Shown here: piece by piece, positions 12,552-49,873 of the stretch
Numbering within the stretch: position 1 is the first letter of the stretch
How the letters are laid out: every line of letters begins with the position of its first letter
Assembly (NCBI GenBank): GCA_017547845.1
Contig: JAFYNZ010000046.1
Span: 1-53,658, forward strand
DNA length: 53,658 nt
Source: Muribaculaceae bacterium
GTDB lineage: Bacteria > Bacteroidota > Bacteroidia > Bacteroidales > Muribaculaceae
Direction: 5' to 3'
Translations under genes and position numbers: made by a program
Notes under the pieces: model-generated
The model's database searches: none
Seen by the model: the letters and a program-made list of their open reading frames with translations, nothing else
Told to the model about the DNA's origin: nothing

Positions 12552-13688
12552 CTATAGAATGTCGGGGATAGAAGCTACGGCTGCTTGCTTGTTTTTATCC
12601 AGGACCTTTGCGTATATCTGTGTCGTTCCGATCTCTCGATGACCAAGCAATTTGCTGACCGTGTATATATCTGTTCCCAGGTCGAGCATCATAACAGCAA
12701 AGGTGTGTCGAGCACAGTGAAACGTGATGTCCTTCTTGATGCCAGCTCTCTGTATCCACACCTTGATAATCTCATTCGTAACAGATGTAGTGTATATATT
12801 GTCGAACACCTTTTCATCATCGCTCTTTCTATTGCCCATAAGTTCTGCTGCTTGCTTATTGATGTCGAGATACTCTTGCCCACCAGTCTTCTTCTGCTTG
12901 AAGATTATTCGTGTGTATTCGCCCTGCTGGTGCACCTCTCCCCAGGTGAGCTTTATGATATCGCTTCTGCGTAGTCCAGTGAGGCACGAAAAGAGAAACG
13001 CCTTTCTTACGCTTTCAACCTCACATTCTACTTTAGTCAGCATCTGTAACTCATCGAGTGTGAGATACATTCGTGTACTTTCTTCGCCCTTGAAGCTCTC
13101 TATGCCTCTAAGTGGATTGTTCGCTATAATTCTATCCTCGAACGCCTTGTTCAAGCAAGCTCGAAGTTTGTTGAAGTAACTCTGCTTAGAGTTCTCAGAC
13201 AGAAGCTTATTGCCAGCTCGCTTCTTGGGGCAACAGCTCCATATATACGCTTTCTTATCCAGGAACTCCTTGAAGCCCTCTACCCATTTGGGGGTTATCT
13301 CTGCGAACGTGATATTTTGGTTCTTCTCGTATTGCTCCAGGTATCGCAATGCTGATATCCAGTTTCCCCAGTTACTCTTGCTAACCTCGCCCAGTCGTTT
13401 ATCACACATATCCTTGTAGTAGTCGAAGAACCTGGTGTTTTCTGCAAAGTCGTTCTTGAAGCCGTATTCGTGGTTCTGAACCTCGACTACTCGCTTAGCC
13501 TTGATGGCTTCAGCCAGTCTCATAGTCTCTCGGTTCTTCTCTTTGTCGGCTCGTGATGTCTCGGGGATGAGATAGAGCTTGAGGTATTCATACTCTCGCT
13601 TACCATTTAGATAGATGTCAAGATAGAGCGAAGTGTTGCCCGTGGTAAGCTTTCTCTTTCGTAGTTTTACTGATTCCTTGTTGTTCAT
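12552..13688 (-). CDS. int: Tyrosine recombinase (phage integrase)
   Basis: Start at 13688 (MNNKESVKL) is chosen over 13739, which adds a Cys/Gln-rich leader. The 378-residue protein has an Arm/SAM-like N-terminal part with a phage integrase core-binding domain (about 95-190). The catalytic domain has TGLRRSD (Arg near 240), H-x-x-R (HCAR, 324-327), LLGHRE (His near 350) and the nucleophile Tyr near 359 (QIYAKV). It integrates and excises the prophage. The attachment site should lie in the non-coding DNA upstream (13.7-14.15 kb). Confidence 0.92.
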   Translation of the reverse strand: MNNKESVKLRKRKLTTGNTSLYLDIYLNGKREYEYLKLYLIPETSRADKEKNRETMRLAEAIKAKRVVEVQNHEYGFKNDFAENTRFFDYYKDMCDKRLGEVSKSNWGNWISALRYLEQYEKNQNITFAEITPKWVEGFKEFLDKKAYIWSCCPKKRAGNKLLSENSKQSYFNKLRACLNKAFEDRIIANNPLRGIESFKGEESTRMYLTLDELQMLTKVECEVESVRKAFLFSCLTGLRRSDIIKLTWGEVHQQGEYTRIIFKQKKTGGQEYLDINKQAAELMGNRKSDDEKVFDNIYTTSVTNEIIKVWIQRAGIKKDITFHCARHTFAVMMLDLGTDIYTVSKLLGHREIGTTQIYAKVLDKNKQAAVASIPDIL

Positions 13689-13712
13689 AGTTTGTTGCGT
13701 TTGTTGCTCATT

Positions 13713-13726
13713 GTTGTTCGAGCAAC
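13713..13726. promoter_or_regulatory. Palindrome in the integrase leader
   Basis: GTTGTTCGAGCAAC is a near-perfect inverted repeat (one mismatch) 25 bp before the integrase start. Just beside it, TTGCTCATTG (13704-13713) differs by one base from the iteron core. It may be an integrase arm site or an initiator site. Confidence 0.4.
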
Positions 13727-13739
13727 AAAGTAACAACAA

Positions 13740-31920: not shown

Positions 31921-31921
31921 T

Positions 31922-32251: not shown

Positions 32252-32256
32252 TGCCG

Positions 32257-33366: not shown

Positions 33367-33380
33367 AGTCTTGCCGTGAT

Positions 33381-33971
33381 TTACTGGTTAATGATAATGA
33401 TGTTGGGGTTTGTCTTGAGACAGAAGCCACCCTCTACGAGCCAGTCGGCTGGGAAAGGTGTGCATACAGCCTTCAACAAGATAGCGTCGTGCGATGCGTC
33501 GATTGTGGGAAGACCACCCTTGCGAATCTCGAGGTCTGCTGCGAGTACAGCGTTCGCTACATACTTTGGAGCCTTGCTGTTTGCGTCAGCCTCCTGCAAG
33601 AAGTCGCCCTCTGCAAGACCTGTGATTGCGGTTGCTACCTCGATAACATCGTAGTCGGGGTTGCTACGATCTACGCTCTTCACAGTAGTTGTGCTGTCGC
33701 CACCTACCTTCATCACTGTATCACCAGGACAAAGGTTGTTTCGCTTGCTCACACGAGCAGCAGAGGTTGTACCGCCAGCGAGAACCTTGCCCACCTTAAC
33801 GATAGCAGCCTCCATGGCATCGACATCCAACGCTACGAATGCACCACGCAAGATAACCTCGCCCACTGGAAAGGTCTGCTTCATTGCGTAGCCACCAGGC
33901 ATCACCTTTGGCTCACGCCAAAAAGCGTTCATATTGCCTGGATAGGTTGTTCTTTCAAACTTAATCGCCAT
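33381..33971 (-). CDS. Capsid decoration / head fibre-like protein
   Basis: This 196-residue Gly/Ala/Val-rich protein, with repeated short strands (e.g. PVGEVILRGAFVALDVDAM), resembles DUF2190-like decoration proteins found just before capsid genes. It lies 14 bp from the capsid gene. Its start follows the leader motif CCATTAAACCGATTGCATT. Confidence 0.65.
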   Translation of the reverse strand: MAIKFERTTYPGNMNAFWREPKVMPGGYAMKQTFPVGEVILRGAFVALDVDAMEAAIVKVGKVLAGGTTSAARVSKRNNLCPGDTVMKVGGDSTTTVKSVDRSNPDYDVIEVATAITGLAEGDFLQEADANSKAPKYVANAVLAADLEIRKGGLPTIDASHDAILLKAVCTPFPADWLVEGGFCLKTNPNIIIINQ

Positions 33972-33990
33972 AATGCAATCGGTTTAATGG

Positions 33991-34578
33991 TTAGAAATTT
34001 GGCAGCGAGTTCGCCCATGATTTAGCGTCATCTTTGGCTGCCTGCTCCGATGAAGAAATGATGTCCGCTTTGTCTGCTGGCATCAAGTTGTTGGTGATAA
34101 GCTCTTGTTTGTACTCCGTAAGCTCCTTGGCGATGTCGGCATCATCAGCGAGTGAGATGCGTTTCATCAAGAAGTCGGGTATACCAAGCTCTTTCGCCTT
34201 TGCAGCAATGGATGCACCACGTTCAGCCTTACTCTTTTCGAGCTTCATAGCAGCGTTCTCGTCTTTCAACTCCTGGAGCTGCTTCTCCTGCTGTACTTTG
34301 TAAGCCTTGAACCACTCGGGTTCATCATCGCCGTTTCCGCCTTTAGGAGGGTCTGCAGGTCTCTCCGCTGGCTTCTTGTTCTGCGACTTGCGTGTTACCT
34401 CCGCCTGCATGAATTTTGCGAATGGTACCAACGAATCCGCTTTCTTTTCGATGTCCTCCTCTGAGGTCTCATCTGTTAAGCCCTCGCTACCTGATGTCGC
34501 CAAGTCCTCGATGGCTTTCTCTGACAATCCAAAGTCTTTACATTTGGCTTGTAGTGCTGATAATAGCTTTTTGTTCAT
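33991..34578 (-). CDS. Capsid scaffolding protein candidate
   Basis: ATG 34578 (MNKKLLSALQ) is chosen since the upstream frame crosses the promoter. The 195 residues are acidic and Lys-rich with a Pro/Gly linker (about 70-85) and a coiled coil (about 95-130), as in scaffolds. It is the first gene of the late leftward operon, with a -7 box 33 bp upstream. Confidence 0.7.
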   Translation of the reverse strand: MNKKLLSALQAKCKDFGLSEKAIEDLATSGSEGLTDETSEEDIEKKADSLVPFAKFMQAEVTRKSQNKKPAERPADPPKGGNGDDEPEWFKAYKVQQEKQLQELKDENAAMKLEKSKAERGASIAAKAKELGIPDFLMKRISLADDADIAKELTEYKQELITNNLMPADKADIISSSEQAAKDDAKSWANSLPNF

Positions 34579-34610
34579 GTTTCTATGATTGAAATAAATT
34601 CCTTGCACCG

Positions 34611-34618
34611 CAAATATA
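34611..34618 (-). promoter_or_regulatory. Late leftward promoter -7 box
   Basis: TATATTTG on the minus strand, with no good -33 box at the right distance. The operator-like palindrome at 34636-34650 lies 17 bp upstream, so activation by the bound protein is possible. The start would be about 25 bp before the scaffold ATG. Confidence 0.6.
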
Positions 34619-34635
34619 GTGATATTTTGCAAAGA

Positions 34636-34650
34636 GCGCTCAATAAGCAC
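34636..34650. promoter_or_regulatory. Operator-like palindrome, site 2 (late promoter)
   Basis: GCGCTCAATAAGCAC; reverse complement GTGCTTATTGAGCGC. The right half AATAAGCAC is identical to sites 3 and 4. Confidence 0.6.
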
Positions 34651-34758
34651 AGAAAAAAGTGAAAAAATCTACACTTTTGTTACTATTTGAGTCACAATTA
34701 GTTACGAGTGGTTAAAGCAAAACAAAGATGACAAATGTAAAAAATATGTCACAAAATA

Positions 34759-34790
34759 TTTGCATATATCGGATATTTGTCATAATTTTG
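34759..34790 (+). promoter_or_regulatory. Rightward promoter of the accessory island
   Basis: TTTG (34759-34762), 20 bp, then TAATTTTG (34783-34790): full Bacteroidales consensus. The spacer and start region resemble the promoter at 37.08 kb (GCATATATCG ... TGTC ... TTTGTAC). Confidence 0.75.
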
Positions 34791-34814
34791 TACCAGAAAC
34801 AACAACAAATAACA

Positions 34815-34829
34815 ACGCTCAATAAGCAC
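34815..34829. promoter_or_regulatory. Operator-like palindrome, site 3 (leader of the island)
   Basis: ACGCTCAATAAGCAC, about 18 bp after the expected start site of the rightward promoter, in the 5' leader. Bound protein would block elongation. Confidence 0.6.
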
Positions 34830-34873
34830 GACGCAATTAAAATTACAATAGTTATGACAATGAAGGTGGGACT

Positions 34874-35029
34874 ATGAGAACACTACGCAAGACACCAAAG
34901 GTTAGCCGAGCAAGAGCGATACAGATAGTAGCTAACCACAACAGAGTGGCTATCCAGGTGGCGGAACGCTACACAGATAGCGAGTTGAGAGAGGTTCTAA
35001 AACAGTTAAAACTTAAAGCAGATTTCTAA
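34874..35029 (+). CDS. Small basic protein, 51 aa
   Basis: ATG 34874 overlaps the stop of an upstream 7-codon leader (34854-34876, ATGA). The product is Arg/Lys-rich and helical with a SRARAIQIVANH segment that could bind nucleic acid. First gene of the rightward island. Unknown function. Confidence 0.6.
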   Translation: MRTLRKTPKVSRARAIQIVANHNRVAIQVAERYTDSELREVLKQLKLKADF

Positions 35030-35032
35030 GCG

Positions 35033-35212
35033 ATGATTAAGGTAATCTACAACTTGAGGTTCTGGTGCAACGTGGAGAAGACACAATGCAATGACTTTCC
35101 GCAAGTGATGATATGCGACAAGGTCTTAATAGAGGGCAACCTCGCTTACCTATATCGAGGGGGCTACTGCCAGCAGTGCATCGCAAAGAGCGATATCATC
35201 AAGATAGAATAA
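35033..35212 (+). CDS. Small cysteine-containing protein, 59 aa
   Basis: It starts 3 bp after the stop of the upstream gene and contains five or six Cys residues, including a CxxC (CQQC) near the end, so a zinc site is likely. Beta-rich. No family recognised. Confidence 0.6.
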   Translation: MIKVIYNLRFWCNVEKTQCNDFPQVMICDKVLIEGNLAYLYRGGYCQQCIAKSDIIKIE

Positions 35213-35238
35213 TCAATAACCATTAACGCAATACTGAT

Positions 35239-35559
35239 ATGACATTTAGAGAGTTTCAAAAGCAGCAGTTCGGTTACGACTGCATCACTACATTCTGGGA
35301 GGATTTCGCAATCGCAGACCGCTTCGGTCTCAACGCTGTAAAGGACACCTTCAAGCGTGCCTTCAGTGAGTGGAAAACTAACTATAAGTACCTCACAGAG
35401 CTTGTAATCGTTCTTAACCACAGATGCTGGATGCATCACGGCAAGGGTAACATGGCACTATCCAAGCTATATGCGGACCTTGACTACGAGGCTGACGGCT
35501 ACGCAAAGGAGACGCTCCAGGGAGAAGAGGCAGAGTATTACTTTAAGATCACAGACTGA
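35239..35559 (+). CDS. Hypothetical protein, 106 aa
   Basis: It opens with MTFREFQKQQFGYDCI and contains many Trp, Tyr and Phe residues. The start is preceded by AACCATTAACGCAATACTGAT, the recurring leader. It resembles small proteins common on Bacteroides mobile elements, of unknown function. Confidence 0.7.
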   Translation: MTFREFQKQQFGYDCITTFWEDFAIADRFGLNAVKDTFKRAFSEWKTNYKYLTELVIVLNHRCWMHHGKGNMALSKLYADLDYEADGYAKETLQGEEAEYYFKITD

Positions 35560-35639
35560 TGGCGTGATGTTGCAGGGAATTTTGTAGTGCGGTTGTATGA
35601 GTTCCGCGAGTGGTGTTTAATCTTAAAAAAATAACGATA

Positions 35640-36059
35640 ATGAAAACGCAAATTGAAATTATTTCTTTGATGGAGAAATACGGGCTTACATTGCGAAACT
35701 TGCCAAAAAAAGTAGTTGAGCATCGTACATTTAGACCTGACTCACTGGAGGAAGTGATAGAGATCATCGTAGGTAATACCTCGCAGCAAAATTTTGACAA
35801 AATGAAGGAAAAGGGGCGCTATTCCGATTGTCGTTTTTCTAATGGCTTTATAGTTAGAAAATTTAATCGTATCGAAAGAATTTGCGAGGGGGGATGGTTG
35901 GTAAAGATTGACCGAGGCACGGGTAGTATGCAACGATGGGATAGAAAGCACGGAGATTTTTACGGCAAAACAGCGGAGGAGGCTATAATTTTAGCGGTTA
36001 AATATATAGAGAAAAGAGAAAAAGAGACAGAACAAATCAAAAATATTGTAGGCTTATAA
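35640..36059 (+). CDS. Hypothetical protein, 139 aa
   Basis: ATG 35640 is chosen; a 10-residue upstream extension has no leader. The protein is basic with a helical N-terminus and KRE-rich end. Its AT content is visibly higher than the phage genes around, which suggests separate acquisition. No motif recognised. Confidence 0.65.
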   Translation: MKTQIEIISLMEKYGLTLRNLPKKVVEHRTFRPDSLEEVIEIIVGNTSQQNFDKMKEKGRYSDCRFSNGFIVRKFNRIERICEGGWLVKIDRGTGSMQRWDRKHGDFYGKTAEEAIILAVKYIEKREKETEQIKNIVGL

Positions 36060-36091
36060 TAAGATAATTTTTTATATAAAAGTAGGTTATT

Positions 36092-36460
36092 ATGAAAGAA
36101 TTTTATCAGGTTCGTTTATGGTGTTCAGATGACTCGTGCGAGGAGTTCTGGTCTTATAAGGATTTAAGCCCCGTATATAGTGATATAAAGGATGCGGAGA
36201 CATTTTTAAGCCAATACGAAGGTAAAACATCTTCGGAGATAGAGAAAATGTGCGATGTTGTTTCTGTGAGAAATAACCGCCCACAGATTCATATAATCGA
36301 AGTATCTACAAAAGAAGAGAGCACACCCGAAAACATTATATTAAAGGCTTATAAATGGATAGAAAACAATGCGTCGGATTATGTGGTTACTTGTTACGAT
36401 AGGGGGCAAATTGATTTAGACAGCCTACTGTCCGACTTCTTAAAAGCAATGAATTTGTAG
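36092..36460 (+). CDS. Hypothetical protein, 122 aa
   Basis: Acidic alpha/beta protein (FYQVRLWCSDDSCEEFW at the start). It lies in the same AT-rich segment. No catalytic motif seen. Possibly a host-takeover or anti-defence protein, by location only. Confidence 0.65.
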   Translation: MKEFYQVRLWCSDDSCEEFWSYKDLSPVYSDIKDAETFLSQYEGKTSSEIEKMCDVVSVRNNRPQIHIIEVSTKEESTPENIILKAYKWIENNASDYVVTCYDRGQIDLDSLLSDFLKAMNL

Positions 36461-36543
36461 GGTCAAAGCAAAACCGATACAGTGCAAAAAAGCCCATAGG
36501 GGTAAAATCAAAATAATGGCGTCTTCTTAAATTTTAATGAGAC

Positions 36544-36942
36544 ATGAAAAGTTTTATCGAGTTTTGTAAGGAGTATTTATTTGAGCGTTTAGACGAGTAC
36601 GAAGGCAGAAATATATATGCGTGTGATATGGCATATATTTTATGCGAGGGTGCAAATTGCGATGGCACAATAACATATAGCAGAGCCGAAGCAATTAAGC
36701 ACTTATGCGAGTGGTGGTATGATGCAGCCGACTATTCAGAATATGAACAAATGAATTTTGGGGAGCGTTCTAATCCGTTTGAAAATCCAGAGGCATATAT
36801 GGTGCGAATGGTTATTTGTGGTATTGGCTATTTGTTGAGCCGTTGCGAAGTGGTTGATGAGTCGTGGAATGATGAGTTGGAATTGTCCCCCGAAGTAATT
36901 GAGGCGATTAAGGAGCAATGCCCCGATGAGGTGGAGTGGTAA
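36544..36942 (+). CDS. Hypothetical acidic protein, 132 aa
   Basis: Very acidic, Trp- and Tyr-rich and mostly helical, with about six Cys. Such negatively charged small phage proteins can mimic DNA and inhibit host enzymes, but this is speculation. AT-rich DNA, as for the two genes before it. Confidence 0.65.
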   Translation: MKSFIEFCKEYLFERLDEYEGRNIYACDMAYILCEGANCDGTITYSRAEAIKHLCEWWYDAADYSEYEQMNFGERSNPFENPEAYMVRMVICGIGYLLSRCEVVDESWNDELELSPEVIEAIKEQCPDEVEW

Positions 36943-36960
36943 CGTATCTTGGTGGGTGGC

Positions 36961-37047
36961 GTGGCGAGGGATATAATTACCGACATGGAGGAGGTAGAGG
37001 CAATGCTTCAAGAGTTATATATTGAGCTTATTTCTTTTAATTCTTAG
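36961..37047 (+). CDS. Possible very small GTG-start ORF, 28 aa
   Basis: GTG 36961 to TAG 37045 gives 28 acidic residues; an internal ATG at 36985 is an alternative. It lies in the 189-bp gap after the acidic protein. Weak support; the gap also holds the 37.07-37.11 kb inverted repeat. Confidence 0.2.
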   Translation: MARDIITDMEEVEAMLQELYIELISFNS

Positions 37048-37068
37048 ACTGAAAACAAACAAAAGTAC

Positions 37069-37109
37069 ACAAAGGTATGGCATATATCGAAAATATGTCG
37101 TACCTTTGT
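37069..37109. repeat. Inverted repeat with promoter boxes on both strands
   Basis: ACAAAGGTA (37069-37077) and TACCTTTGT (37101-37109) are perfect 9-bp arms. Each contains a TACCTTTG -7 box, one per strand. Inside, GGCATAT and ATATGTC nearly pair. It could be a regulated bidirectional promoter. Confidence 0.6.
37077..37108 (+). promoter_or_regulatory. Second rightward island promoter
   Basis: The -7 box TACCTTTG is at 37101-37108, 24 bp before the next ATG; the -33 position has ATGG, weaker than TTTG. The sequence between is very similar to that of the 34.76 kb promoter, so a shared regulator is possible. It should express the ADP-ribosylglycohydrolase. Confidence 0.65.
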
Positions 37110-37131
37110 ACTGAATATCAAACACAAGACT

Positions 37132-37371
37132 ATGGCGACAAGGAAAATATTTCACGTTGAATTCCGTGAGCCTATCGACGGAAAGAGACACTACTATTTT
37201 GGCTCGAAAGCTGCCATTTTCCAGCGTTTCACCCTGGAGCAAGTGGGCATAACCTATCGCTCGCTTCGTAACGTGGGAAGCATAAAAGATGAGCCGTACA
37301 TCAACAAGCAATGTACGATATGGCAGGGCGAGCTTATATCATCACCACAATCAAACAAAGAAGACGAGTAA
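37132..37371 (+). CDS. Hypothetical protein, 79 aa
   Basis: A small protein (MATRKIFHVEFREPI) that appears beta-rich at its N-terminus and ends in a charged tail. It starts about 17 bp after the predicted transcript start, and its TAA overlaps the ATG of the glycohydrolase gene (TAATG), so the two are coupled. No family known to me. Confidence 0.7.
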   Translation: MATRKIFHVEFREPIDGKRHYYFGSKAAIFQRFTLEQVGITYRSLRNVGSIKDEPYINKQCTIWQGELISSPQSNKEDE

Positions 37372-38144
37372 TGTTAGGAGCAATTATCGGAGATATTGTT
37401 GGCTCACGCTTCGAGTTCAACAACACAGATAGATTAGATTTTGAACTATTCACGCCAGAGTGTAGCTTCACTGATGACACCATCTGCACCGTTGCTATTG
37501 CGAACGCTCTCACATCGGGCACAGATAGGAACTACAAGGGATGGCTTCAAGCCTGGTGCAATGCGTACCCTAATCCTATGGGTGGTTATGGAGGCTCTTT
37601 TGCACGCTGGATAGCTTCGGATGATCCACAGCCTTACAACAGCTTCGGCAATGGTTCTGCAATGCGAGTGTCGGCTATAGGCTGGTATTTCGACACGCTT
37701 GAGGAGGTTCAGATTGAAGCTGGCAATAGTGCCTTGCCAACGCACAATCATTTAGAGGGTGTCAAGGGTGCTATAGCAACGGCAACGGCAATATTCCTGG
37801 CTCGCACCCAGGGAAAGGAGGCAATGCTCAAGGCTATCAAGGAGCACTACTATCCAACATGGGTAGAACCACAGCTCGGCAAGAACCGCTTTGATGAGAC
37901 CTGCCAGGGGACAATGCCCGTTGTGTTCGGCATCATTGACAAGGCAAACGGCTTCGAGGAAGCTATACGCTACGCCATTGCTGTAGGCGGAGATAGTGAC
38001 ACCATAGGAGCGATTGTTGGTAGTATAGCAGAGGCAATATGGGGCATACCTCCAGTAATAGTCAATACCGCATATAAGTACATACCAGCACCAATGATGA
38101 GTATTGTTTCAAAATTCATGCACAACTATGGATACATTCGATAA
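37371..38144 (+). CDS. ADP-ribosylglycohydrolase (DraG-like)
   Basis: Start at 37371 overlaps the preceding stop and gives 257 residues. The motifs GDIVGSRFE (residues 7-15), SFTDDT near 32-37, FGNGSAMR near 87, and AVGGDSDTIGAI near 203-214 supply the two-metal site of the family. It removes ADP-ribose from proteins or DNA. On the facing strand, 320 bp away, a MuF head protein carries an ADP-ribosyltransferase domain, so this gene could protect the lysogen or reset a modified target. Confidence 0.9.
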   Translation: MLGAIIGDIVGSRFEFNNTDRLDFELFTPECSFTDDTICTVAIANALTSGTDRNYKGWLQAWCNAYPNPMGGYGGSFARWIASDDPQPYNSFGNGSAMRVSAIGWYFDTLEEVQIEAGNSALPTHNHLEGVKGAIATATAIFLARTQGKEAMLKAIKEHYYPTWVEPQLGKNRFDETCQGTMPVVFGIIDKANGFEEAIRYAIAVGGDSDTIGAIVGSIAEAIWGIPPVIVNTAYKYIPAPMMSIVSKFMHNYGYIR

Positions 38145-38466
38145 ATGGAAGAACTACACATACTATAAGGGTGAGATACAGAATCCTTTCAGTGGATGGA
38201 ATTTCGGCAAGGCGTTCTGGTGGAACGTAGAGAAGTATGCTGTGGAAGCTGGCGATGATAAGAAGCCAGGTAAGCTATCAGACACCATGGTGGCCTATAT
38301 TCGGGAGCTTCACTGGGAGGGTCCAGGACATTACGACACTACGAAAGCAGAAATGCTGGAGCGTGCCACAGAGCTATACACTCACGGTGTGTGGTCCAGT
38401 GAATATATAAGCATCAAGCGTAGCACGTTCCAGCAAGCCGTCAAGAGCAGTAAGCTGAACGATTAG
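38128..38466 (+). CDS. Hypothetical protein, 112 aa
   Basis: Two starts are possible (38104 and 38128); I chose ATG 38128 since MDTFDKWKNYTYY looks like a natural N-terminus. It overlaps the glycohydrolase end by 17 bp and converges with the MuF gene by 4 bp. Trp/Tyr-rich, unknown family. It may work with the hydrolase. Confidence 0.65.
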   Translation: MDTFDKWKNYTYYKGEIQNPFSGWNFGKAFWWNVEKYAVEAGDDKKPGKLSDTMVAYIRELHWEGPGHYDTTKAEMLERATELYTHGVWSSEYISIKRSTFQQAVKSSKLND

Positions 38467-41156
38467 ATTATCTCTTCGAGCTCGACATAGTAGCGAGAAC
38501 CGATGTATTTAGGAGGGGCAAGGACTTTGTACTTTGCCCCTCTTAGTGTCATAATCTCGAACTCTGATGAGTAGTCAGAGATAGCATGTATGTATGCACC
38601 CGTCTTGTTGTGAATTATCAAGATAGTATCGCCATCGAAAGACTTTGCCACAGAGTGCTTCATTGACGTTGAGCATGAGGCATTATTTACCCAGGGCTTA
38701 TTGCTGTTGTAAGCCTTGGTCAGAGCGTCACGCAATTCTGGGCCACCATCTCCTTTAAGACCTCGGAATGTAACACCATTATAGCGGACCATTCTATCTA
38801 TAGTGTAGTTCGCACCTTGCGACCACTCCTCGATAATCTCACATTGCTCTGCAATCTGAGCCTTTGTTAGACGGCTCATCTTGCGGTCGAATATATCCCT
38901 CCAGTATTGAGACTCGTGTCTTAGGTTGTAGCAGTTGCTGAATGTAGAACCGTTCGTGAATCGCTTAACAACCGACACCTCTTCCTCTGTGAGACCGTTG
39001 AGCTTTGGCATATATGCACGAACCTTTGAGCTACCTGGACTATAGACACCGCCCAGTTCAGCACCCCAAATATAGCTCGGGTTCGTTGATGGTCTCGCTA
39101 TATACCTATCAAGCATATCCTTCATAGCCTTACGCTCGCTGTCGCTATATATCGACATCTGCTTAGAGTAGTATTTCTCTGAAAGCTGAAGAGTGTAGTC
39201 GTGATATCTCTCGATTAGGTAGTCATCAGCTCCATTGCCATTCATGATGCCGTCAATAATCTGCTTCTCATAATCAGCAAGCTTCGCACGCTCGGCAGAG
39301 GTGAATGGGTCGCCTCCGTCATACAAACCCTTTGCTCCCTTGCCGAACTTTCGCCTTTCTCGGGCATCTGCAGCACGTTTAAGGGCTGCACGCTTGTCTT
39401 GCATATCTACGACTACAGACTGAGCCTTAAGTTTGTCTCCAGCAGCTATAGAGGCTTGCAAGTCATCGATGAGTGCGAGGTATGGCTTACTCTTTGTCTC
39501 GAATGTCAGTGCCTCCTGGAGTACATCATCGATGTTCTGCCAGTCGATAGCATCAATAACCTTGGCGTGCTGTCTGATATATGCAGCTTGCGATACCTCC
39601 CAGGTGGGGTATAGCTTGTGAGGCTTGAGATAGGTCGGGTCTGAGACGTACTTGATTTCCTTTTCGAGCAACGCCTTCTTTTGCTCCAGAACTGACTTGT
39701 ACTTGAAACTGTCGAAAGCTGTGTTGTCGAGCTCTGCCAGTTTCTTCTCGACGGCATCGTAGACCTCGTGAAGCTCGGCAGATGAGAACTGCTTCTTCCA
39801 CTCGTGTACATCTGGGATGAGCTGGGATAGCATCTGCTCATCTTTGCGTACCTCCATAATCTGTTTAGCGACGCTCCTTGCCTCTTTATCCATTGAAGCA
39901 ATGTTCCTACCGTCAACGAACGATTGAAGCTGTGAGATGTCAATTTCGGGGTATTCCTGGGCAACTTTAAGGACATTGCCAGCCATGGTCGTGATGTTGC
40001 GATACTTTTTAGAGCGTTCCGCCCATTTCTGCCTGATAGCCTCACGCTCCTCGGCTGTGCGAACTCGCTGTTTACGCTTGCCGTTGATGTAGTCCTGGTT
40101 GTCCTGCACCCAGTATGGCATAGCTGTAGCACTTTCCACTCTGCCCTTGTTGTCATCCCACCACTTGTAGAAGCTGTCGCTTGGTCTGAGGATGGTGTTC
40201 TCGCTACGAATATATGTGGGGTCATCGCCAGCGAGTATCATCTCCTGCATAGCTACGAACTCATCCTCTGTTGCGAGGATAGGCGTAACGTAGCATCGGC
40301 ACTGTGGATGCCAGCCCTTGAACACAAAGTCTTTTGGATACTTGCCTTTCAGTGCATCACACACGGAGCAGCTATAGCCTCGCTTAGAGCGTTTAACCTC
40401 AAAGCCTACCACAAAGTCCATACGTTGCCATCGGTCTTGCTCTGCTGTGCGGTACGCCATGTTGGTCTCTGTGCGAGCCAATCTCATAGCGTTCTTGTAG
40501 CTACTGCGATACACGCCTTGTCCTGGATGATAAGCCTTGGCAGCTTTCGAGAGCTTATATAGGGGGTTGCCGTCAGCATCCACGCCCGTCTTGATGCGTC
40601 TAAATAGCTTCTCGGGCTCCTGGAGATACTGGCGAACGGCTCTCGATACTGTAGAAGCAGAATCGCCCTGCCCCAATGATAGGGACAGAGCAAGCTCCAT
40701 TTCGGTCTTTAGGTCGCCAGTGTATCGCCACACCTTCTGTGAGAGGTTCATGCCACCATAGGCAGACTTGCGAGCGAAGAACGCATCCATAGCCTCCTGG
40801 TTGCGTGAGAACCAGCGTGCGAAATGGTTGTCCTGGAGCACACCTTTGCCGAAGATTGACTCTATCAACGCATCACACGAGAGGTTCGCATATTCCCACT
40901 CAGCCATAACGCCACCCTTGATTTCATTGTACACAGCCGAATACAGCCCCCGTAAGACATTGTTAGCTCCGTCTGATATCTTTTTATTATCAGCGAAAGA
41001 AAACGTCTCATTCGGGCTAATTTTGGCGTTAGATGACAATTTTAGCAGCTCATCCACTGCCGAAGCGTAATGTCTGCGTACTTTGTCGGCATATTCCTCC
41101 GTTCTGGGGAACAATCCCGAAGCGTATTTGTCTATGTCAATCTTCTTCTTTGCCAT
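38463..41156 (-). CDS. MuF head protein fused to an ADP-ribosyltransferase domain
   Basis: Residues about 140-310 form the phage Mu F domain (ARTETNMAYRTAEQDRW, VCDALKGKY, HPQCRCYVTPIL with zinc-type Cys). Residues 310-780 are a long charged helical linker. The last 110 residues hold the R-S-E hallmarks of ADP-ribosyltransferases: FRG (Arg near 798), STS (829-831) and ExE (EFE, 865-867). MuF proteins are virion components, and C-terminal toxins on them are known. A packaged effector is the inference. Length 897 aa is far above that of a plain MuF. Confidence 0.85.
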   Translation of the reverse strand: MAKKKIDIDKYASGLFPRTEEYADKVRRHYASAVDELLKLSSNAKISPNETFSFADNKKISDGANNVLRGLYSAVYNEIKGGVMAEWEYANLSCDALIESIFGKGVLQDNHFARWFSRNQEAMDAFFARKSAYGGMNLSQKVWRYTGDLKTEMELALSLSLGQGDSASTVSRAVRQYLQEPEKLFRRIKTGVDADGNPLYKLSKAAKAYHPGQGVYRSSYKNAMRLARTETNMAYRTAEQDRWQRMDFVVGFEVKRSKRGYSCSVCDALKGKYPKDFVFKGWHPQCRCYVTPILATEDEFVAMQEMILAGDDPTYIRSENTILRPSDSFYKWWDDNKGRVESATAMPYWVQDNQDYINGKRKQRVRTAEEREAIRQKWAERSKKYRNITTMAGNVLKVAQEYPEIDISQLQSFVDGRNIASMDKEARSVAKQIMEVRKDEQMLSQLIPDVHEWKKQFSSAELHEVYDAVEKKLAELDNTAFDSFKYKSVLEQKKALLEKEIKYVSDPTYLKPHKLYPTWEVSQAAYIRQHAKVIDAIDWQNIDDVLQEALTFETKSKPYLALIDDLQASIAAGDKLKAQSVVVDMQDKRAALKRAADARERRKFGKGAKGLYDGGDPFTSAERAKLADYEKQIIDGIMNGNGADDYLIERYHDYTLQLSEKYYSKQMSIYSDSERKAMKDMLDRYIARPSTNPSYIWGAELGGVYSPGSSKVRAYMPKLNGLTEEEVSVVKRFTNGSTFSNCYNLRHESQYWRDIFDRKMSRLTKAQIAEQCEIIEEWSQGANYTIDRMVRYNGVTFRGLKGDGGPELRDALTKAYNSNKPWVNNASCSTSMKHSVAKSFDGDTILIIHNKTGAYIHAISDYSSEFEIMTLRGAKYKVLAPPKYIGSRYYVELEEII

Positions 41157-41158
41157 GT

Positions 41159-41341
41159 TTACATGATTTTGTCGAACTGCTCACAGCCGTCTCGAGTGAG
41201 GAAGCGTGAACGTTTGGTGTGGAGTCTACAACGGCAAAGAAAGGGGAGACCATCTGCCCCTTTCTCGTGCCAGTCGTAAGCGTGCTTGCAGTCCTTGCAG
41301 TCTACTGTGTTGTTCTGCTTCTTTGCTTGTGTCTTAGCCAT
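41159..41341 (-). CDS. Small zinc-ribbon protein, 60 aa
   Basis: Five or six Cys with the patterns CKDCKH and CRC and a DGCEQF end, typical of small Zn-binding proteins found between portal and MuF genes in this phage group. ATG overlaps the portal stop. Function unknown. Confidence 0.7.
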   Translation of the reverse strand: MAKTQAKKQNNTVDCKDCKHAYDWHEKGADGLPFLCRCRLHTKRSRFLTRDGCEQFDKIM

Positions 41342-42792
41342 TACTCAGCCCCTCCGAAAACATCATCCCTGGTTTGTGTTGCACCGAAGATGTCACGCTG
41401 TCGCTGTGCTGCCTCTGTTGCCTCCTTGGTTATACGGTTCATCTCCTGGGTCTTATCCTTAACGAGAGGGTTAAGCTCGATAGCACCCTCTGTTGAGAGC
41501 ATACCAGCGTCTGTAGCCTTGGCGATGTTCTCGATAGCCTCCTTGATGTCCTCACCGAATGGTTCCTGGTACTCATGACCGATAACGAGCTTGTCGCACT
41601 CGCCCTTGAGAGCGATGTTCATCACGTTGCCGATAATCGATATCATGAGGTTACCAGTACGATCCAGGAGCTCATCGTGTGTCTCCTTGTGGCGTGATGC
41701 CTTGATATCCGCCAGGAGCATCATCTGCTTGAGAGCCTTACCCGATACGTTCGACAAGCCCTTCATACTCTCGAAGTCGATATTGGGCGTAAAGGTCTTA
41801 GTGAGAATATGCTTCTGTAGCCACTCAATCTCCTTCTGTTTGCTCTCTGGTGCACTATCCCAGGTTAGGTAATGTGCTGCCTTGGTCGCATCATCCTGGC
41901 CCTTTACGATGAGTGTCTTGTTCTCATCGCCCTTCTCGGGAAGGTTCTTGATTATATCTGCGTTCACGACAAACTGGGGGTCTGCGAAGTAGTCGTTGAT
42001 GTCTGCCGTCTTTGAACCGATATACTCCTCACGCTCGATGAGAGGCTCAACGCCCTTCCACTCCTTGTCCTGCTGGAATAGTATCACTGGAATCTTGCCG
42101 ATAGGGTTGTCCTCTGTCTCAACCTCCCAGCCAGTGATAGTACGCTTACAGCGATAGATGACATCGGGGGTGAAGATGTCGAAATGGTACGATGTCTCGG
42201 TGCTGCTATCCTTGACGTGGTAGCCCCAGGCGAACGATACGAGGTTCTCGTACATATCCCAGCGTGCGTATATCTCATCGCCCTTGCTTGCTGCGAGAAC
42301 TCGTATCTGGCAGTCGGGCTGGTTCTCGTTGTTGCGGAACACACGGAACAGCATGGCTGACTGTGTCTCCGCACCAGCGAGGCGTTTGCACTGGCGTATC
42401 TTGCTGTCGAAACGTGTACGCTTCACGAGGTCCTGGAACGCACGATAGGCATTGTCTGTGCCCTCGCTCTGATTAGTCCACTTGATAGGTCGACCATAGA
42501 TGAACACCACGGCAATTTCGTTGATGTACTGAGGGTAGTTGATGGGTAGTCTCCATCGCTTGACCACGCCTCTGCGTTCTCCTTTGGCGTTCTTGATGAT
42601 TTTGTCGGGGCGACGCATGACCTCGTGCTGCATAGGGTCATACTCCCTCATGGCTTCTGCGACAAGGGCTTCACGTGTGGAGAACAGCTCCTTAACTCGT
42701 GTGATGTCCTTTGCTGCTATAAGCTCCTCGAACTCTTGATTTCTGCCTACTACCGCATTGAGGTAGTTCGTAATCATGTTGATTAATCCCAT
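41341..42792 (-). CDS. Portal protein (SPP1 gp6-like)
   Basis: This 483-residue protein matches the SPP1-type portal family: an N-terminal helical region, conserved VVKRWRLPINYPQYINEIAV, the clip and stem region, GSKTADINDYF near 275, LSNVSGKALKQM near 350, and an acidic C-terminal end. It forms the dodecameric DNA gate and lies directly after terminase. Confidence 0.92.
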   Translation of the reverse strand: MGLINMITNYLNAVVGRNQEFEELIAAKDITRVKELFSTREALVAEAMREYDPMQHEVMRRPDKIIKNAKGERRGVVKRWRLPINYPQYINEIAVVFIYGRPIKWTNQSEGTDNAYRAFQDLVKRTRFDSKIRQCKRLAGAETQSAMLFRVFRNNENQPDCQIRVLAASKGDEIYARWDMYENLVSFAWGYHVKDSSTETSYHFDIFTPDVIYRCKRTITGWEVETEDNPIGKIPVILFQQDKEWKGVEPLIEREEYIGSKTADINDYFADPQFVVNADIIKNLPEKGDENKTLIVKGQDDATKAAHYLTWDSAPESKQKEIEWLQKHILTKTFTPNIDFESMKGLSNVSGKALKQMMLLADIKASRHKETHDELLDRTGNLMISIIGNVMNIALKGECDKLVIGHEYQEPFGEDIKEAIENIAKATDAGMLSTEGAIELNPLVKDKTQEMNRITKEATEAAQRQRDIFGATQTRDDVFGGAE

Positions 42793-42808
42793 TGTCTAAA
42801 AGTGTTAG

Positions 42809-44275
42809 TTAAAATAAAGCATCCACATCCTCGGGGATGTCTATATCATCATCCATAAAGTAGTTTATTGCATAGCCCAAAAGGTCCACATACTCATCGT
42901 GAACCTTTGTGGGGAAACCACATACCTCGTCGATGAACTCCTCATTCCATTCACCATCTACGAGAAACACACGTCCACATTCGACCTTTGGAGCTACAGC
43001 ATGTAGTCGCACATCCTTGGCATCGGTAGGTGTCGGCGTGTATGTCACATTTAGCTTGGTGCTCACCTCGAGCTGCTGTACCACGCTCTTACCATTCGCC
43101 TTTGGCTCAACACGGAGCGTACTTTGGCGGTCGTCATAGTCGTTGGCGTATAGGTACTCGGGGAGGAACTTTAGCAGTTCGGGGAATGTCTTGTAAACCT
43201 TCTTTGCATGGGTGATATAGATGTTGTTCTTGATTTTGCACGCTGCGATGATACCCGAAGGGTCGTTGTCTGTTTTCTTCTTCTTCTCATCGTATGCCGT
43301 GTCGAGGAAGAAGTGCATAGGCTCTCGGTAGCGTAGTGCTCGAAAGTCTGCGAACGATATGTGTCTGAACCAGTCCTCCTTGATGATGTTACCACCAGCA
43401 GCACTGGGCATCTGCATATACTGACCAGCATATCCTCGTGAGCCCAGGTCTACCTTTGCCTCATTCAGTACTGCTCTATTCAGTCGCTTGGGGTCAAGGA
43501 GACCATCGACATAGTGCTTGCGTAGCTCTATGGGCTTGACATCCTCGCAGTCCTCCGCTGGGAGACATATATGGCGGATGTTCTCGCCCTTCTTCTTGAG
43601 CGTATAGCCCGTGACATCCTCCTCGTGGAGACGCTGCATAATCGTAACCACTGGAGTATTCGCCTTGTCTACCTTACGAGAAGATAGCGTCTTGGTATGC
43701 TCATTTGCCGATGTTCGGAGCTGTTCAGACTCTGCCTGCTTGGGGTTCACTGGGTCATCATTGATGATTACGTGAGCGTGAAAACCAGTGATCGTGGCAC
43801 CAGTAGATGTGGCGTAGCGGTAGCCCGTATCAGTGTTCTCATAGTTTTGTTTGCCCGACTTATCCTTACGGATTTGGATATTGGGGAACAAGGCTCTGAA
43901 CTTATCAGAATGGATGATGTCCTTGCTCTTTGTGGCGTGCTCGATAGACAGACCACCAGAGTACGAGTTCGTGATTATTCGCAACGAGGGGTCTTGCGTC
44001 CATAGCCACACTGGCCACATGATAGTCACGATTGTCGACTTGGTTGTACCAGGGGGAATGTTCACGATAAGGTCATACGGCTTTGGCTCTCGTGCCACAA
44101 TGGACACAGAGAGCTTCTGCAATTCATCGCATAGAAACGGAATATGCCAGTTATAGGTAGGCTCCTCCTTGATTATCACATCCCAAAAGGTCTGGACAAA
44201 ATAGAAGAAGCTCTTCCTACACTGGTCAGCAACCACCCTCAATGCGAGTGTCGTATAATCTACCCTTGATATCAT
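42809..44275 (-). CDS. terL: Terminase large subunit
   Basis: This 488-residue protein has an ATPase domain with the Walker A-like PPGTTKS (74-80) and a TNSYSGGLS segment near 103. Its RNase H-like nuclease domain has FFLDTAYDEKKK near 320-331 and DIPEDVDALF at the end. It packages DNA into proheads. It overlaps the small subunit by 4 bp and is followed by the portal gene. Confidence 0.93.
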   Translation of the reverse strand: MISRVDYTTLALRVVADQCRKSFFYFVQTFWDVIIKEEPTYNWHIPFLCDELQKLSVSIVAREPKPYDLIVNIPPGTTKSTIVTIMWPVWLWTQDPSLRIITNSYSGGLSIEHATKSKDIIHSDKFRALFPNIQIRKDKSGKQNYENTDTGYRYATSTGATITGFHAHVIINDDPVNPKQAESEQLRTSANEHTKTLSSRKVDKANTPVVTIMQRLHEEDVTGYTLKKKGENIRHICLPAEDCEDVKPIELRKHYVDGLLDPKRLNRAVLNEAKVDLGSRGYAGQYMQMPSAAGGNIIKEDWFRHISFADFRALRYREPMHFFLDTAYDEKKKKTDNDPSGIIAACKIKNNIYITHAKKVYKTFPELLKFLPEYLYANDYDDRQSTLRVEPKANGKSVVQQLEVSTKLNVTYTPTPTDAKDVRLHAVAPKVECGRVFLVDGEWNEEFIDEVCGFPTKVHDEYVDLLGYAINYFMDDDIDIPEDVDALF

Positions 44276-44703
44276 TCCTTGGTGTTAAGTGCCTCTTGAC
44301 CGAGGCGGAGCAATAGCTCACGTTCCTCATCTGAAAGCTTCTCAATGTCAATCTCGTTGCTCTTGATTAGAGCCTCGCCATCCTTGCCAGTAATCTCCTG
44401 GCGTTCTGTGTAGCCTCTATCCTTCATCTGTGTCTTAGCATAGAAGATGAGCATTGTGGTGTCGCCCTCTTTCATCTTCTTGAGTATAAGGCTCTCGGCA
44501 AAGTCTTTCTGTAGCTCCTTGATGTCGTCTGCCTTCTCCTTGAATTCGGGGTCCTCGTTGTACCAGCGATAGAACGTCATGCGTGATATGTTTGCAGCCT
44601 TGCACGCTGACGCAATAATGCCACTGGTGTTAGCCAGTGCCTGGAGTAGCTCCTCCTTGCTCTGTGCCGTTCTCTCCTCAATCTTCTCCTCTCGTGTTGC
44701 CAT
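44272..44703 (-). CDS. Terminase small subunit-like HTH protein
   Basis: This 143-residue protein has an N-terminal helix-turn-helix (GIIASACKAANISRMTFYRWYNEDPEFKE) of the phBC6A51 type and a helical C-terminal part for oligomerisation. It overlaps terL and should recognise the packaging site. Confidence 0.8.
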   Translation of the reverse strand: MATREEKIEERTAQSKEELLQALANTSGIIASACKAANISRMTFYRWYNEDPEFKEKADDIKELQKDFAESLILKKMKEGDTTMLIFYAKTQMKDRGYTERQEITGKDGEALIKSNEIDIEKLSDEERELLLRLGQEALNTKE

Positions 44704-44704
44704 A

Positions 44705-45805
44705 CTACTTCTTACGTTTGATTACTCCATCTCGTTTCTCTGTGTCTCTGTAGAGGTCGCCTAATAGCACTCTATAGATGCGTTTCTTGGGGTCTCCAGC
44801 AATGAGCATCTGATACATGTGCTGATAGGTCTTGTTGCTCGTAGCCTCGTTTACACGCACATATAGCTTCTTGACATCCTTATATCCAGGGTAGTCATCG
44901 GGGCTAAGTGCAGCCTTTCGCATCTCCTCAATGAACATCTTTTTGTAGTCCTTGCCCTTCTCCGTCTCGAACTTCTGGTCCTGCTTTGATGAGCGGAACA
45001 TATCAGTATCCCAGTAGAGCATCACCAGGTCTGCATTTGGCTCACGCTTCAAGACACGCTCGTATAGGTCGGGGTAGAACTCCATGACCTTGGGCAAGCT
45101 CTTGATGGTGTCGATGCTGAAGAACTGCGATAGACGGAGCTTGTTCAATGGCACACCCACCTTGTAAAGGTAGATGTAGGTCATAGGTATCTGTAGGTTC
45201 GCACGCTGGATGTATAGCCACACATCGTTGTCTGTCCAGTCGTAGATAGGATAGATGTACTGGCCCTTGTTCTTTGAACTTGATATCGCTGCCTGACGCT
45301 GTATCGACTCTGACATACGCAAGCCCACCATCTGTGGGATGCTCTTGAATAGCCTTGGTGCGAACTTCTGATAGCTCATGCCCATCTCGAAGTCCTTGTG
45401 GTTGCGGATGGCGAACTTGGGCATGGGGCGTACCCATACGCTCTCCTTGCCTGGCTCCCAGCAGAAGAAGCTCTCATCGTTGGCGAGCTTGTTGCAACAG
45501 TTGTAGTGCTTGATAGGGAGACAGAACCAGTAGAACTTAGCTCCCAGAGACATGAACTTGCTTCGCCACTCAAGAGCGGTTTTCTCGACATCTGGATAGA
45601 TTGCTTCCTCATCGAAGAATATCACGATCAATCGGGAGAAGGATATGCCGTACTTCTGCATCGTTTTGATTACGATATCAGACATACAGATGCTATCCTT
45701 ACCTCCCGAAAAGCTCATCGATACGGTCTTGTTGTTAAGGAACGCCTCATATACTCTGCGTTCCGCTGCTTGAACGACATTTACGCCTAACTCTCGTGTT
45801 ATCAT
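44705..45805 (-). CDS. PAPS reductase-like (IbrA-like) ATP-pyrophosphatase
   Basis: The P-loop SGGKDS (33-38) marks the adenine-nucleotide alpha-hydrolase fold of PAPS reductases, ThiI and DndC. The middle contains a CC pair and more Cys (NCCNKLANDESFFC), and the length (366) and C-terminal extension resemble IbrA/DUF3440. The neighbour upstream is a ParB-like IbrB homologue, 11 bp away, as in known ibrAB pairs. Possible roles: thio-chemistry on DNA or RNA, or regulation. Confidence 0.8.
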   Translation of the reverse strand: MITRELGVNVVQAAERRVYEAFLNNKTVSMSFSGGKDSICMSDIVIKTMQKYGISFSRLIVIFFDEEAIYPDVEKTALEWRSKFMSLGAKFYWFCLPIKHYNCCNKLANDESFFCWEPGKESVWVRPMPKFAIRNHKDFEMGMSYQKFAPRLFKSIPQMVGLRMSESIQRQAAISSSKNKGQYIYPIYDWTDNDVWLYIQRANLQIPMTYIYLYKVGVPLNKLRLSQFFSIDTIKSLPKVMEFYPDLYERVLKREPNADLVMLYWDTDMFRSSKQDQKFETEKGKDYKKMFIEEMRKAALSPDDYPGYKDVKKLYVRVNEATSNKTYQHMYQMLIAGDPKKRIYRVLLGDLYRDTEKRDGVIKRKK

Positions 45806-45816
45806 GGGCAGCCCTC

Positions 45817-46353
45817 CTATCCACGAATAACACGGCGAGCCTCGCTAAATGTCTGCTCACCACGTGATGTTAGCATCTTCAAGAATGTCTCTCGGTCAAT
45901 CTTTGAGAGGCGGAAAATCTCCTCTCGGCTCATGCCTATCTTCTTGCTTATCTCATCCACGGTCAAGCCCTCTGCAAGGAGCTTCTTCACGATGTTCTCC
46001 ATAGGCTCGAGCAAGTGAGTGCCTCGAGCACGGTTGAATGTCACCGTACCAGCCATGTCATCTGTGGCGTTCTCGTGGGCTACGATAACGACTGGTATCT
46101 TGTTACCCAGCATTGTCTTCAGAGGTTCACGACCACTCACGCACCAGCGGTGAAAGCCGTCGATGATAGTGTAGTCGGGTCTGATTACTATCGGGAAACA
46201 GAAGCCGTTATTCAGAATACTCTCCATGAGGAGCTTGAGGTTCTTCTCCAGGACCTTGTTAGGGTTGTAGTCGTTAGGCTTCACCAGGTCTCTGTCGATG
46301 AACTGCAAGTTCTTCAGTGGGGCGAATAGGTCTTTGTTCTTAGTATTGCTCAT
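45817..46353 (-). CDS. ParB-like (IbrB-like) protein
   Basis: This 178-residue protein has the ParB/Srx N-terminal fold with LIRP-type strand (PIVIRPDYTIIDGFHRW), followed by an HTH (LTVDEISKKIGMSREEIFRL) and a basic end. The IbrB family always accompanies IbrA-like genes. It is not a partition protein here: no ParA and no centromere array. Confidence 0.8.
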   Translation of the reverse strand: MSNTKNKDLFAPLKNLQFIDRDLVKPNDYNPNKVLEKNLKLLMESILNNGFCFPIVIRPDYTIIDGFHRWCVSGREPLKTMLGNKIPVVIVAHENATDDMAGTVTFNRARGTHLLEPMENIVKKLLAEGLTVDEISKKIGMSREEIFRLSKIDRETFLKMLTSRGEQTFSEARRVIRG

Positions 46354-46364
46354 AGTTGTTCTGT

Positions 46365-46949: not shown

Positions 46950-46953
46950 AGTG

Positions 46954-47739: not shown

Positions 47740-47741
47740 AG

Positions 47742-48359: not shown

Positions 48360-48393
48360 GTTTCTTTTGCGTTTTAAGCGTGTTTCGTAATGT

Positions 48394-49866: not shown

Positions 49867-49873
49867 GTAAATA

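What the first reader, a model, noticed from the sequence alone, without database searches (positions are those of the whole stretch)
37371..41156. MuF head protein with an ADP-ribosyltransferase domain facing an ADP-ribosylglycohydrolase gene
Seen: the last 110 residues of the 897-aa MuF protein carry FRG, STS and ExE, the R-S-E set of ADP-ribosyltransferases. On the other strand, 320 bp past its stop, a DraG-like hydrolase has complete metal-site motifs. Known: MuF proteins are packaged in the capsid and can carry C-terminal toxins. Inference: the phage injects or carries a transferase acting on the host, and the hydrolase, expressed from its own consensus promoter, protects the lysogen or reverses the mark. 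A paired writer and eraser in one phage is rarely noted.
Basis: partly seen in the sequence, partly recalled or inferred. Interest (0 to 1): 0.9.

Follow-up and report, generated by a model that had tools for sequence, protein, structure and literature searches.

The report
Phage head toxin with two antidotes
A temperate phage carries a head protein that ends in a protein-modifying toxin domain, with two small genes beside it that look like its antidotes; sets of this kind are already published (Bxa-BAH-Bsi), and the new point is that toxin and blocking antidote seem to be exchanged together between phages while the enzyme that undoes the damage stays in place.

Summary
In detail: the 897-aa MuF head protein ends in an R-S-E ADP-ribosyltransferase (ART; Pfam PF03496 above cut-off), and a complete ADP-ribosylglycohydrolase faces it.

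The set is homologous to a published one: in Bacteroides stercoris the MuF toxin Bxa is neutralised by BAH (hydrolase that reverses it) and Bsi (small, binds it) (PMC11699363). The immunity reading is thus supported; 'rarely noted' is not.

Among 101 distinct MuF loci (480 aa or more, at least 1 kb downstream) the hydrolase is in 42 of 47 ART types and 0 of 54 others; on the MuF tree it follows ART in 12 of 14 independent pairs on average, never the reverse.

New here: ART and Bsi-like gene are swapped together, BAH is not. Among close phages Bsi identity is 0.69 (same ART type) against 0.24 (different); BAH 0.60 against 0.61. DNA similarity to L003 stops at the BAH/Bsi junction. Against exclusivity: 0 of 29 hydrolase loci from other genomes had an ART nearby.

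The parts
37069..37109 (.). inverted repeat (17-nt arms 37069-37085 and 37093-37109, 88% complementary) overlapping the promoter-like TACCTTTG at 37101-37108; possible operator/promoter of the + strand genes
   Evidence: similar palindromes before the same gene in L003, L004 and L010 only; no general excess over shuffles in 77 upstream regions. The Bacteroidota -7 consensus TAnnTTTG is recalled
37132..37371 (+). 79-aa gene, phrog_10608, function unknown; first gene of the + strand stretch, stop overlaps the hydrolase start; not toxin-specific
   Evidence: phrog_10608 E 2.2e-25; family found in 43 of 47 ART-type and 25 of 54 other MuF loci
37371..38144 (+). ADP-ribosylglycohydrolase, BAH-like; predicted enzymatic immunity protein
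   Evidence: PF03747 E 4.3e-30; phrog_6572 E 6.8e-65; metal-site residues and E15 invariant 42/42
38128..38466 (+). 112-aa Bsi-like small protein, predicted toxin-binding immunity protein; overlaps the hydrolase end by 17 nt and the MuF stop by 4 nt
   Evidence: reached from the Versailles small protein at E 5.2e-14 by iterative search, and at E 7.9e-9 by a model made without it
38463..41156 (-). MuF head protein, 897 aa, with C-terminal ART toxin domain
   Evidence: phrog_16625 'Bxa ADP-ribosyl transferase' over residues 1-607, E 7.1e-141, and head-morphogenesis PHROGs
38466..38819 (-). core of the ART domain (about MuF residues 780-897; R798, S829, E865, E867)
   Evidence: PF03496 over residues 822-878, above cut-off
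38048..39530 (.). stretch without DNA similarity to the near relatives L003/L006 although both flanks align: exchanged unit of small gene plus MuF C-terminus (from about residue 543)
   Evidence: blastn: window 37140-38047 and 39531-41156 align with L003, nothing between; about the same limits with L004 and L107 (38051, 39579)
41341..42792 (-). portal protein (context)
   Evidence: PF05133 E 1.4e-33
42809..44275 (-). terminase large subunit (context)
   Evidence: phrog_38 E 1.5e-87
12552..13739 (-). integrase: the phage is temperate (context)
   Evidence: PF00589 E 1e-23

Best explanation
A Bxa-type MuF polymorphic-toxin module of a temperate phage. The MuF protein is a head protein (by homology; packaging and delivery are inferred) whose C-terminal domain transfers ADP-ribose from NAD to proteins, most likely to arginine (inferred from R-S-ExE and from Bxa). 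Two convergent genes protect the producing cell by different routes: the small protein is thought to plug the toxin's active site, and the hydrolase strips ADP-ribose off what was modified. Because a plug must fit the toxin while the hydrolase acts on the product, toxin domain and plug are exchanged together between phages and the hydrolase stays as a general antidote for the ART class; beside non-ART C-termini it is absent. Shown here by sequence: domains, gene order, association, joint exchange. Shown by others for the B. stercoris homologue: toxicity, reversal by BAH, binding by Bsi. Inferred for this phage: the activity of all three proteins.
For: ART and hydrolase families with complete motifs. 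Same gene order, hydrolase - small gene - convergent MuF-ART, in Bacteroides phage Versailles, whose MuF has 869 aa and the second ExE Glu at 820 as reported for Bxa, and in a Porphyromonas phage. Hydrolase in 42 of 47 ART-type and 0 of 54 other MuF loci, p 3e-23, with L069 counted as ART (uncorrected 41 of 46 and 1 of 55); independent pairs on the MuF tree 12 of 14 on average with, none against. Small gene in 41 of 47 and 1 of 54. Joint exchange: ART-Bsi partial rank correlation 0.46 (p 0.0005) against ART-BAH 0.03 (p 0.29), both given MuF-N. Our ART and hydrolase profiles match the two partner chains of the solved complexes 8za7 and 6dre/6drh. Function of the homologues: PMC11699363.
Against: Five of 47 ART-type loci lack the hydrolase, six lack a recognised small gene. 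Hydrolase relatives are common elsewhere: 49 places in 42 of 295 genomes of the order, the window's genome included; of 30 places fetched, 0 of the 29 other than the window have an ART within about 1.5 kb, some flanks being shorter; L025 has no MuF either. A weak ART-BAH correlation remains when Bsi is held fixed (0.12, p 0.02), and over all pairs BAH is a little more alike with the same ART type (0.59 against 0.52). 13 of 47 ARTs lack the Arg of R-S-E. The two Bsi residues that PMC11699363 found essential have no evident match in the window's small protein: a K[YF]xE pattern occurs in 4 of the small genes scanned and not in the window's. No structure could be predicted.
Confidence: 0.85

Rival explanations
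1. The hydrolase is a counter-defence or housekeeping enzyme that removes ADP-ribose set by host enzymes; it stands beside MuF-ART by shared ancestry of these phages.
For: Relatives without a nearby ART are common in bacterial genomes and the MuF-linked hydrolases are not shown to be one clade (AU p 0.097).
Against: Presence follows the ART type of the MuF C-terminus through repeated independent changes; BAH of B. stercoris neutralises Bxa (PMC11699363).
Confidence: 0.07
2. Reversible control rather than immunity: the phage marks and unmarks host proteins at set times, in the way of DraT and DraG.
For: Writer and eraser lie on opposite strands, so they may be expressed at different times.
Against: The third, small gene fits a toxin-immunity module and is matched to the ART type; the Bacteroides homologue is a toxin neutralised by two immunity proteins (PMC11699363). 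Timing was not tested.
Confidence: 0.05
3. The ART domain of this phage is inactive and the module a relic.
For: The single MuF sequence has no PDB match at E up to 1.
Against: R798, S829, E865 and E867 are all present; all three genes are open; the hydrolase keeps 78% identity to L003 and its whole metal site.
Confidence: 0.03

Closest known systems
Bxa-BAH-Bsi of the Bacteroides stercoris prophage (PMC11699363; abstract, Results, Discussion and two method sections read)
   Same: MuF N-terminus with C-terminal ART, ADP-ribosyl hydrolase with Glu15, small gene beside it; PHROG 16625, named Bxa ADP-ribosyl transferase, covers residues 1-607 of this MuF
   Different: The ART type and the small protein differ: against phage Versailles, whose MuF has Bxa's length and catalytic position, the window has ART 16%, small protein 21%, hydrolase 58%, MuF-N 48% identity
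ART/hydrolase complexes in PDB: 6dre and 6drh (Tre1-Tri1, names recalled) and 8za7 (Lmo0066-Lmo0067)
   Same: Both of our profiles match the two partner chains
   Different: Other carriers than MuF (recalled); the hydrolase profile starts at residue 76 of 6dre_A, so that protein has an extra N-terminal part which ours lacks; that this part is the plug is recalled
MuF polymorphic toxins (PMC5576092, passages) and the enzymatic immunity protein Imm-ARG (PMC3482391, passages)
   Same: MuF-fused toxins of temperate phages followed by a small ORF; hydrolase said to associate with R-S-E ARTs and to reverse them
   Different: The joint exchange of ART and small gene apart from the hydrolase was not in the passages seen
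Apk2 MuF toxins with an alarmone hydrolase and a binding immunity protein (as described in PMC11699363)
   Same: MuF toxin with one enzymatic and one binding immunity protein
   Different: The toxin makes (p)ppApp instead of ADP-ribosylating

Membership tests
Bxa-type MuF toxin module (Bxa-BAH-Bsi) | MuF head domain homologous to that of Bxa | tested here: met
   phrog_16625 E 7.1e-141 over residues 1-607; 40.0% identity over residues 1-585 to the Versailles MuF
Bxa-type MuF toxin module (Bxa-BAH-Bsi) | C-terminal ART domain of the R-S-E type | tested here: met
   PF03496 above cut-off; R798, S829, E865, E867
Bxa-type MuF toxin module (Bxa-BAH-Bsi) | Adjacent ADP-ribosyl hydrolase with catalytic Glu15 | tested here: met
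   PF03747; E15 in 42/42; 57.9% identity to the Versailles hydrolase
Bxa-type MuF toxin module (Bxa-BAH-Bsi) | Adjacent small Bsi-family protein | tested here: met
   Iterative search from the Versailles small protein reaches the window's at E 5.2e-14; pairwise identity is only 21%
Bxa-type MuF toxin module (Bxa-BAH-Bsi) | Small protein binds and blocks the toxin; interface residues | tested here: inconclusive
   No K[YF]xE pattern in the window's small protein; a different ART may use other contacts; binding not testable here
Bxa-type MuF toxin module (Bxa-BAH-Bsi) | Toxicity, and neutralisation by both partners | not testable with these tools
   Needs expression; shown for Bxa by others (PMC11699363)
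ADP-ribosylglycohydrolase (PF03747) | Metal-site residues TDD and DxDT | tested here: met
   T34, D35, D36, D208, D210, T211 each 42/42
ARH1/DraG-like arginine specificity | Acts on Arg-linked rather than Ser-linked ADP-ribose | tested here: inconclusive
   The profile scores ARH3 (E 1.2e-25) above DraG (4.7e-18) and ARH1 (1.3e-9) in PDB, yet BAH of B. stercoris removes Arg-linked ADP-ribose (PMC11699363)
MuF polymorphic toxin | Packaged in the phage head and delivered | not testable with these tools
   Needs virion proteomics

The most novel reading that the evidence does not exclude
The hydrolase is a toxin-agnostic antidote that licenses toxin turnover: as it acts on the product, a phage that keeps it can take up a new R-S-E ART together with its matching plug by exchange at one spot (from the hydrolase end into MuF) and survive, so ART and Bsi types diversify while the hydrolase is retained. 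Host cells may hold the two antidotes as an orphan pair (L193).
Probability: 0.5. Interest if true: 0.6.

Novelty: new member of a known kind. Interest (0 to 1): 0.42.

Why it matters
It places this phage in a functionally tested toxin family and adds a testable rule: one antidote is matched to the toxin's shape and travels with it, the other is matched to the chemistry and stays. That would explain why MuF-ART phages keep two immunity genes, predicts which of them cross-protects, and suggests that the third small gene (phrog_10608) is not toxin-specific.

Tried and rejected
Promoter of its own for the hydrolase: rejected; the promoter-like site and palindrome lie before the 79-aa gene. The palindrome as a general operator of these modules: rejected; it stands out in the window, L003, L004 and L010, other palindromes in L185 and L094, with no general excess in 77 upstream regions. 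A second, variant copy in the same genome: rejected; the first 20,000 of the 21,972 bases of contig C69 equal window 31562-51561 exactly (the remaining 1,972 bases were fetched but not compared), so assembly redundancy is likely. A scan of viral contigs with the ART region alone confirmed no relative, so MuF was used as bait. Defence systems: no PADLOC match for four proteins at E up to 0.01. Hydrolase dedicated to MuF-ART alone: rejected.

183 MuF loci were reduced to 141 at 95% identity; 112 of these have 480 aa or more, 109 of them with complete C-terminus, 101 of those with at least 1 kb downstream. The trees used the quick method without mixture model. The small-gene model was made from 32 ORFs chosen by a motif in the convergent slot of any locus, ART or not; one hit lay outside the slot (L178). 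Small genes of divergent look in L053, L067 and L120 were recognised by eye, not counted in the 41 of 47, but used. The alignment of 47 ARTs leaves out four of the 51 (L019, L020, L026, L047). The 79-aa gene was counted at any distance and orientation within the locus. The eight pairs were picked for unlike ART.
Full report
What is there. The window is one whole contig (53,658 bases) of a draft genome of 2.32 Mb and holds a temperate phage: integrase, terminase, portal, capsid and tape-measure genes. Upstream a 79-aa gene (37132-37371, phrog_10608) ends on the hydrolase start, so the three + strand genes look like one transcription unit (inference); the promoter-like site with an inverted repeat lies before the first of them.

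The domains. MuF residues 822-878 match PF03496 (E 3.4e-6, above cut-off); residues 1-607 match PHROG 16625, named Bxa ADP-ribosyl transferase. An iterative search seeded only with the last 150 residues of this MuF, run over the C-termini of the 112 distinct MuF proteins of at least 480 aa and the same sequences shuffled, converged on 51 natural and no shuffled sequences. In an alignment of 47 of the 51, S829 and E867 are invariant, E865 is 46 of 47, R798 34 of 47; the other 13 have Ser there. 45 of 47 match PF03496 alone at E up to 0.01. As a profile they match 47 distinct PDB sequences at E up to 0.1, chiefly named as ADP-ribosyltransferases, although the single MuF sequence matched none. 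The hydrolase has E15, T34, D35, D36, D208, D210 and T211, each 42 of 42 in the alignment.

Co-occurrence. Relatives of the MuF N-terminus from viral contigs and bacterial genomes, with loci fetched earlier, gave 183 loci, 141 distinct at 95% identity. 42 have a hydrolase within 5 kb; in all 42 it is convergent and 85-2732 bp beyond the MuF stop. Among 101 with MuF of at least 480 aa, a complete C-terminus and at least 1 kb downstream, the hydrolase is in 42 of 47 ART types and 0 of 54 others (Fisher p 3e-23). This counts L069, whose MuF is split by an in-frame stop just before its ART region, as ART; uncorrected it is 41 of 46 and 1 of 55 (p 2e-21). Relatedness was handled with a tree of the MuF N-terminus (126 loci): ART changes at least 24 times, the hydrolase 22; in 14 independent pairs on supported branches the hydrolase goes with ART in 12 on average and never against it (median p 0.0005). 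The small gene is in 41 of 47 and 1 of 54, the 79-aa gene in 43 of 47 and 25 of 54: the first is tied to ART, the second much less. Seen from the other side, of the 16 viral contigs found with the hydrolase as bait, 14 have the MuF or its ART region nearby, L007 too, and L013 ends at the hydrolase.

The other MuF types. Where the MuF C-terminus is of another kind, a different short convergent gene often stands at the MuF stop, and similar C-termini have similar genes: L040, L043, L061, L082; L158, L171, L172; L147, L161, L174; L179, L181 (by eye). This agrees with toxin-specific immunity genes and with what PMC11699363 reports for two other toxin types.

Joint exchange of toxin and small gene. 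In 40 loci with all three proteins, ART identity predicts Bsi-like identity beyond MuF-N identity (partial rank correlation 0.46, permutation p 0.0005) but not hydrolase identity (0.03, p 0.29). With Bsi held fixed a weak ART-hydrolase correlation remains (0.12, p 0.02). Among phages with MuF-N identity of at least 0.65, pairs with the same ART type (75) have median Bsi 0.69 and BAH 0.60; pairs with different ART type (84) have Bsi 0.24 and BAH 0.61. Over all pairs, without regard to relatedness, the figures are Bsi 0.69 against 0.25 and BAH 0.59 against 0.52. Pairs are not independent, hence the permutation test. Window against L003: MuF-N 83%, hydrolase 78%, ART 23%, small gene 26%. Their DNA aligns at 37140-38047 and 39531-41156 with nothing between. 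Of eight further pairs picked for unlike ART, seven show the same gap between the hydrolase gene and the inside of MuF; in the eighth (L120/L062) only part of the hydrolase gene aligned. So the exchanged unit is small gene plus toxin domain, and the hydrolase lies outside it.

What is already known. PMC11699363 showed for Bxa of B. stercoris that the C-terminal ART kills E. coli and modifies arginine, that BAH reverses it and needs Glu15, and that Bsi binds it; a third ORF did not protect; relatives carry other toxins. Phage Versailles has the same gene order, a MuF of 869 aa and its second ExE Glu at residue 820, as reported for Bxa. Whether that third ORF is the phrog_10608 gene could not be tested; in Versailles another ORF lies between that gene and the hydrolase. 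PMC3482391 predicted the hydrolase as an enzymatic immunity protein for R-S-E ARTs (passages); PMC5576092 described MuF toxins, ARTs among them, with small downstream ORFs (passages); PMC9503650 notes MuF-fused ARTs and one phage ART-hydrolase pair (passages). Searches of the open library listed no title that I recognised as reporting the joint exchange; beyond the papers named only listings were seen, so this does not prove absence. The first Bxa paper is not in the library (one search listed only papers citing it).

Other ART/hydrolase pairs. Our ART and hydrolase profiles match the two partner chains of PDB 8za7 and of 6dre/6drh. The hydrolase profile starts at residue 76 of 6dre_A, so that immunity protein has an extra N-terminal part which ours lacks. 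If that part is the plug (recalled), one protein there does what two genes do here.

Results against a tight bond. Five ART-type loci lack the hydrolase (L026, L089, L095, L125, L168); three of these keep the small gene, L125 in two copies. Hydrolase relatives lie at 49 places in 42 of 295 genomes of the order, the window's genome included. Thirty places were fetched with up to 1.5 kb on each side; the window aside, 0 of 29 has an ART there. MuF-linked hydrolases cluster (7 changes against 22.7 on shuffling), but one clade is neither shown nor rejected (AU p 0.097). One of the 29 (L193) has a Bsi-like gene overlapping the hydrolase end, beside ORFs that read as ribosomal proteins L21 and L27 (by eye), with no ART in the flanks: possibly an orphan immunity pair.

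Verdict. The separation of a matched plug that moves with the toxin from a general eraser that stays is the part worth a follow-up.

Noticed in passing
   Followed up: partly
MuF C-termini of L011, L018, L049, L054, L059, L062, L063, L064, L071, L076, L119, L130, L173: A group of ARTs with Ser in place of the Arg of R-S-E (FSG for FRG), while Ser and ExE are kept.
   Followed up: no
L008:11076-15047 (-): MuF of 1323 aa with an insert at the C-x-C region that reads like a Hint/intein domain (by eye).
   Followed up: no
L066:7609-8250 (-) and L077:12381-12995 (-): The small gene is about twice as long and reads as two YYKGE units in tandem.
   Followed up: no
L089, convergent ORF 532 bp beyond the stop of MuF 9001-10617: An ART-type MuF without hydrolase or small gene; a 281-aa convergent ORF that reads like a TIR protein stands downstream (by eye).
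   Followed up: no
L040, L043, L061, L082; L158, L171, L172; L147, L161, L174; L179, L181: MuF C-termini of other kinds each with their own short convergent gene at the MuF stop: candidate immunity genes for further toxin types.
   Followed up: partly
L069:8989-11166 (+) and the ORF directly after it: MuF split by a single in-frame stop just before its ART region, while hydrolase and small gene are intact.
   Followed up: partly
window 31562-51561: Exact copy in contig C69 (its first 20,000 of 21,972 bases) of the same draft genome; probably assembly redundancy.
   Followed up: partly
window 44705-45805 (-), 46954-47739 (-), 48394-49815 (-): Two PAPS-reductase-like genes and a 473-aa sodium:solute symporter family (PF00474) protein beside the packaging genes.
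   Followed up: no
G000:C51:26297-27052 (-): Another ADP-ribosylglycohydrolase (42% identity) on a different contig of the window's own genome.
   Followed up: no
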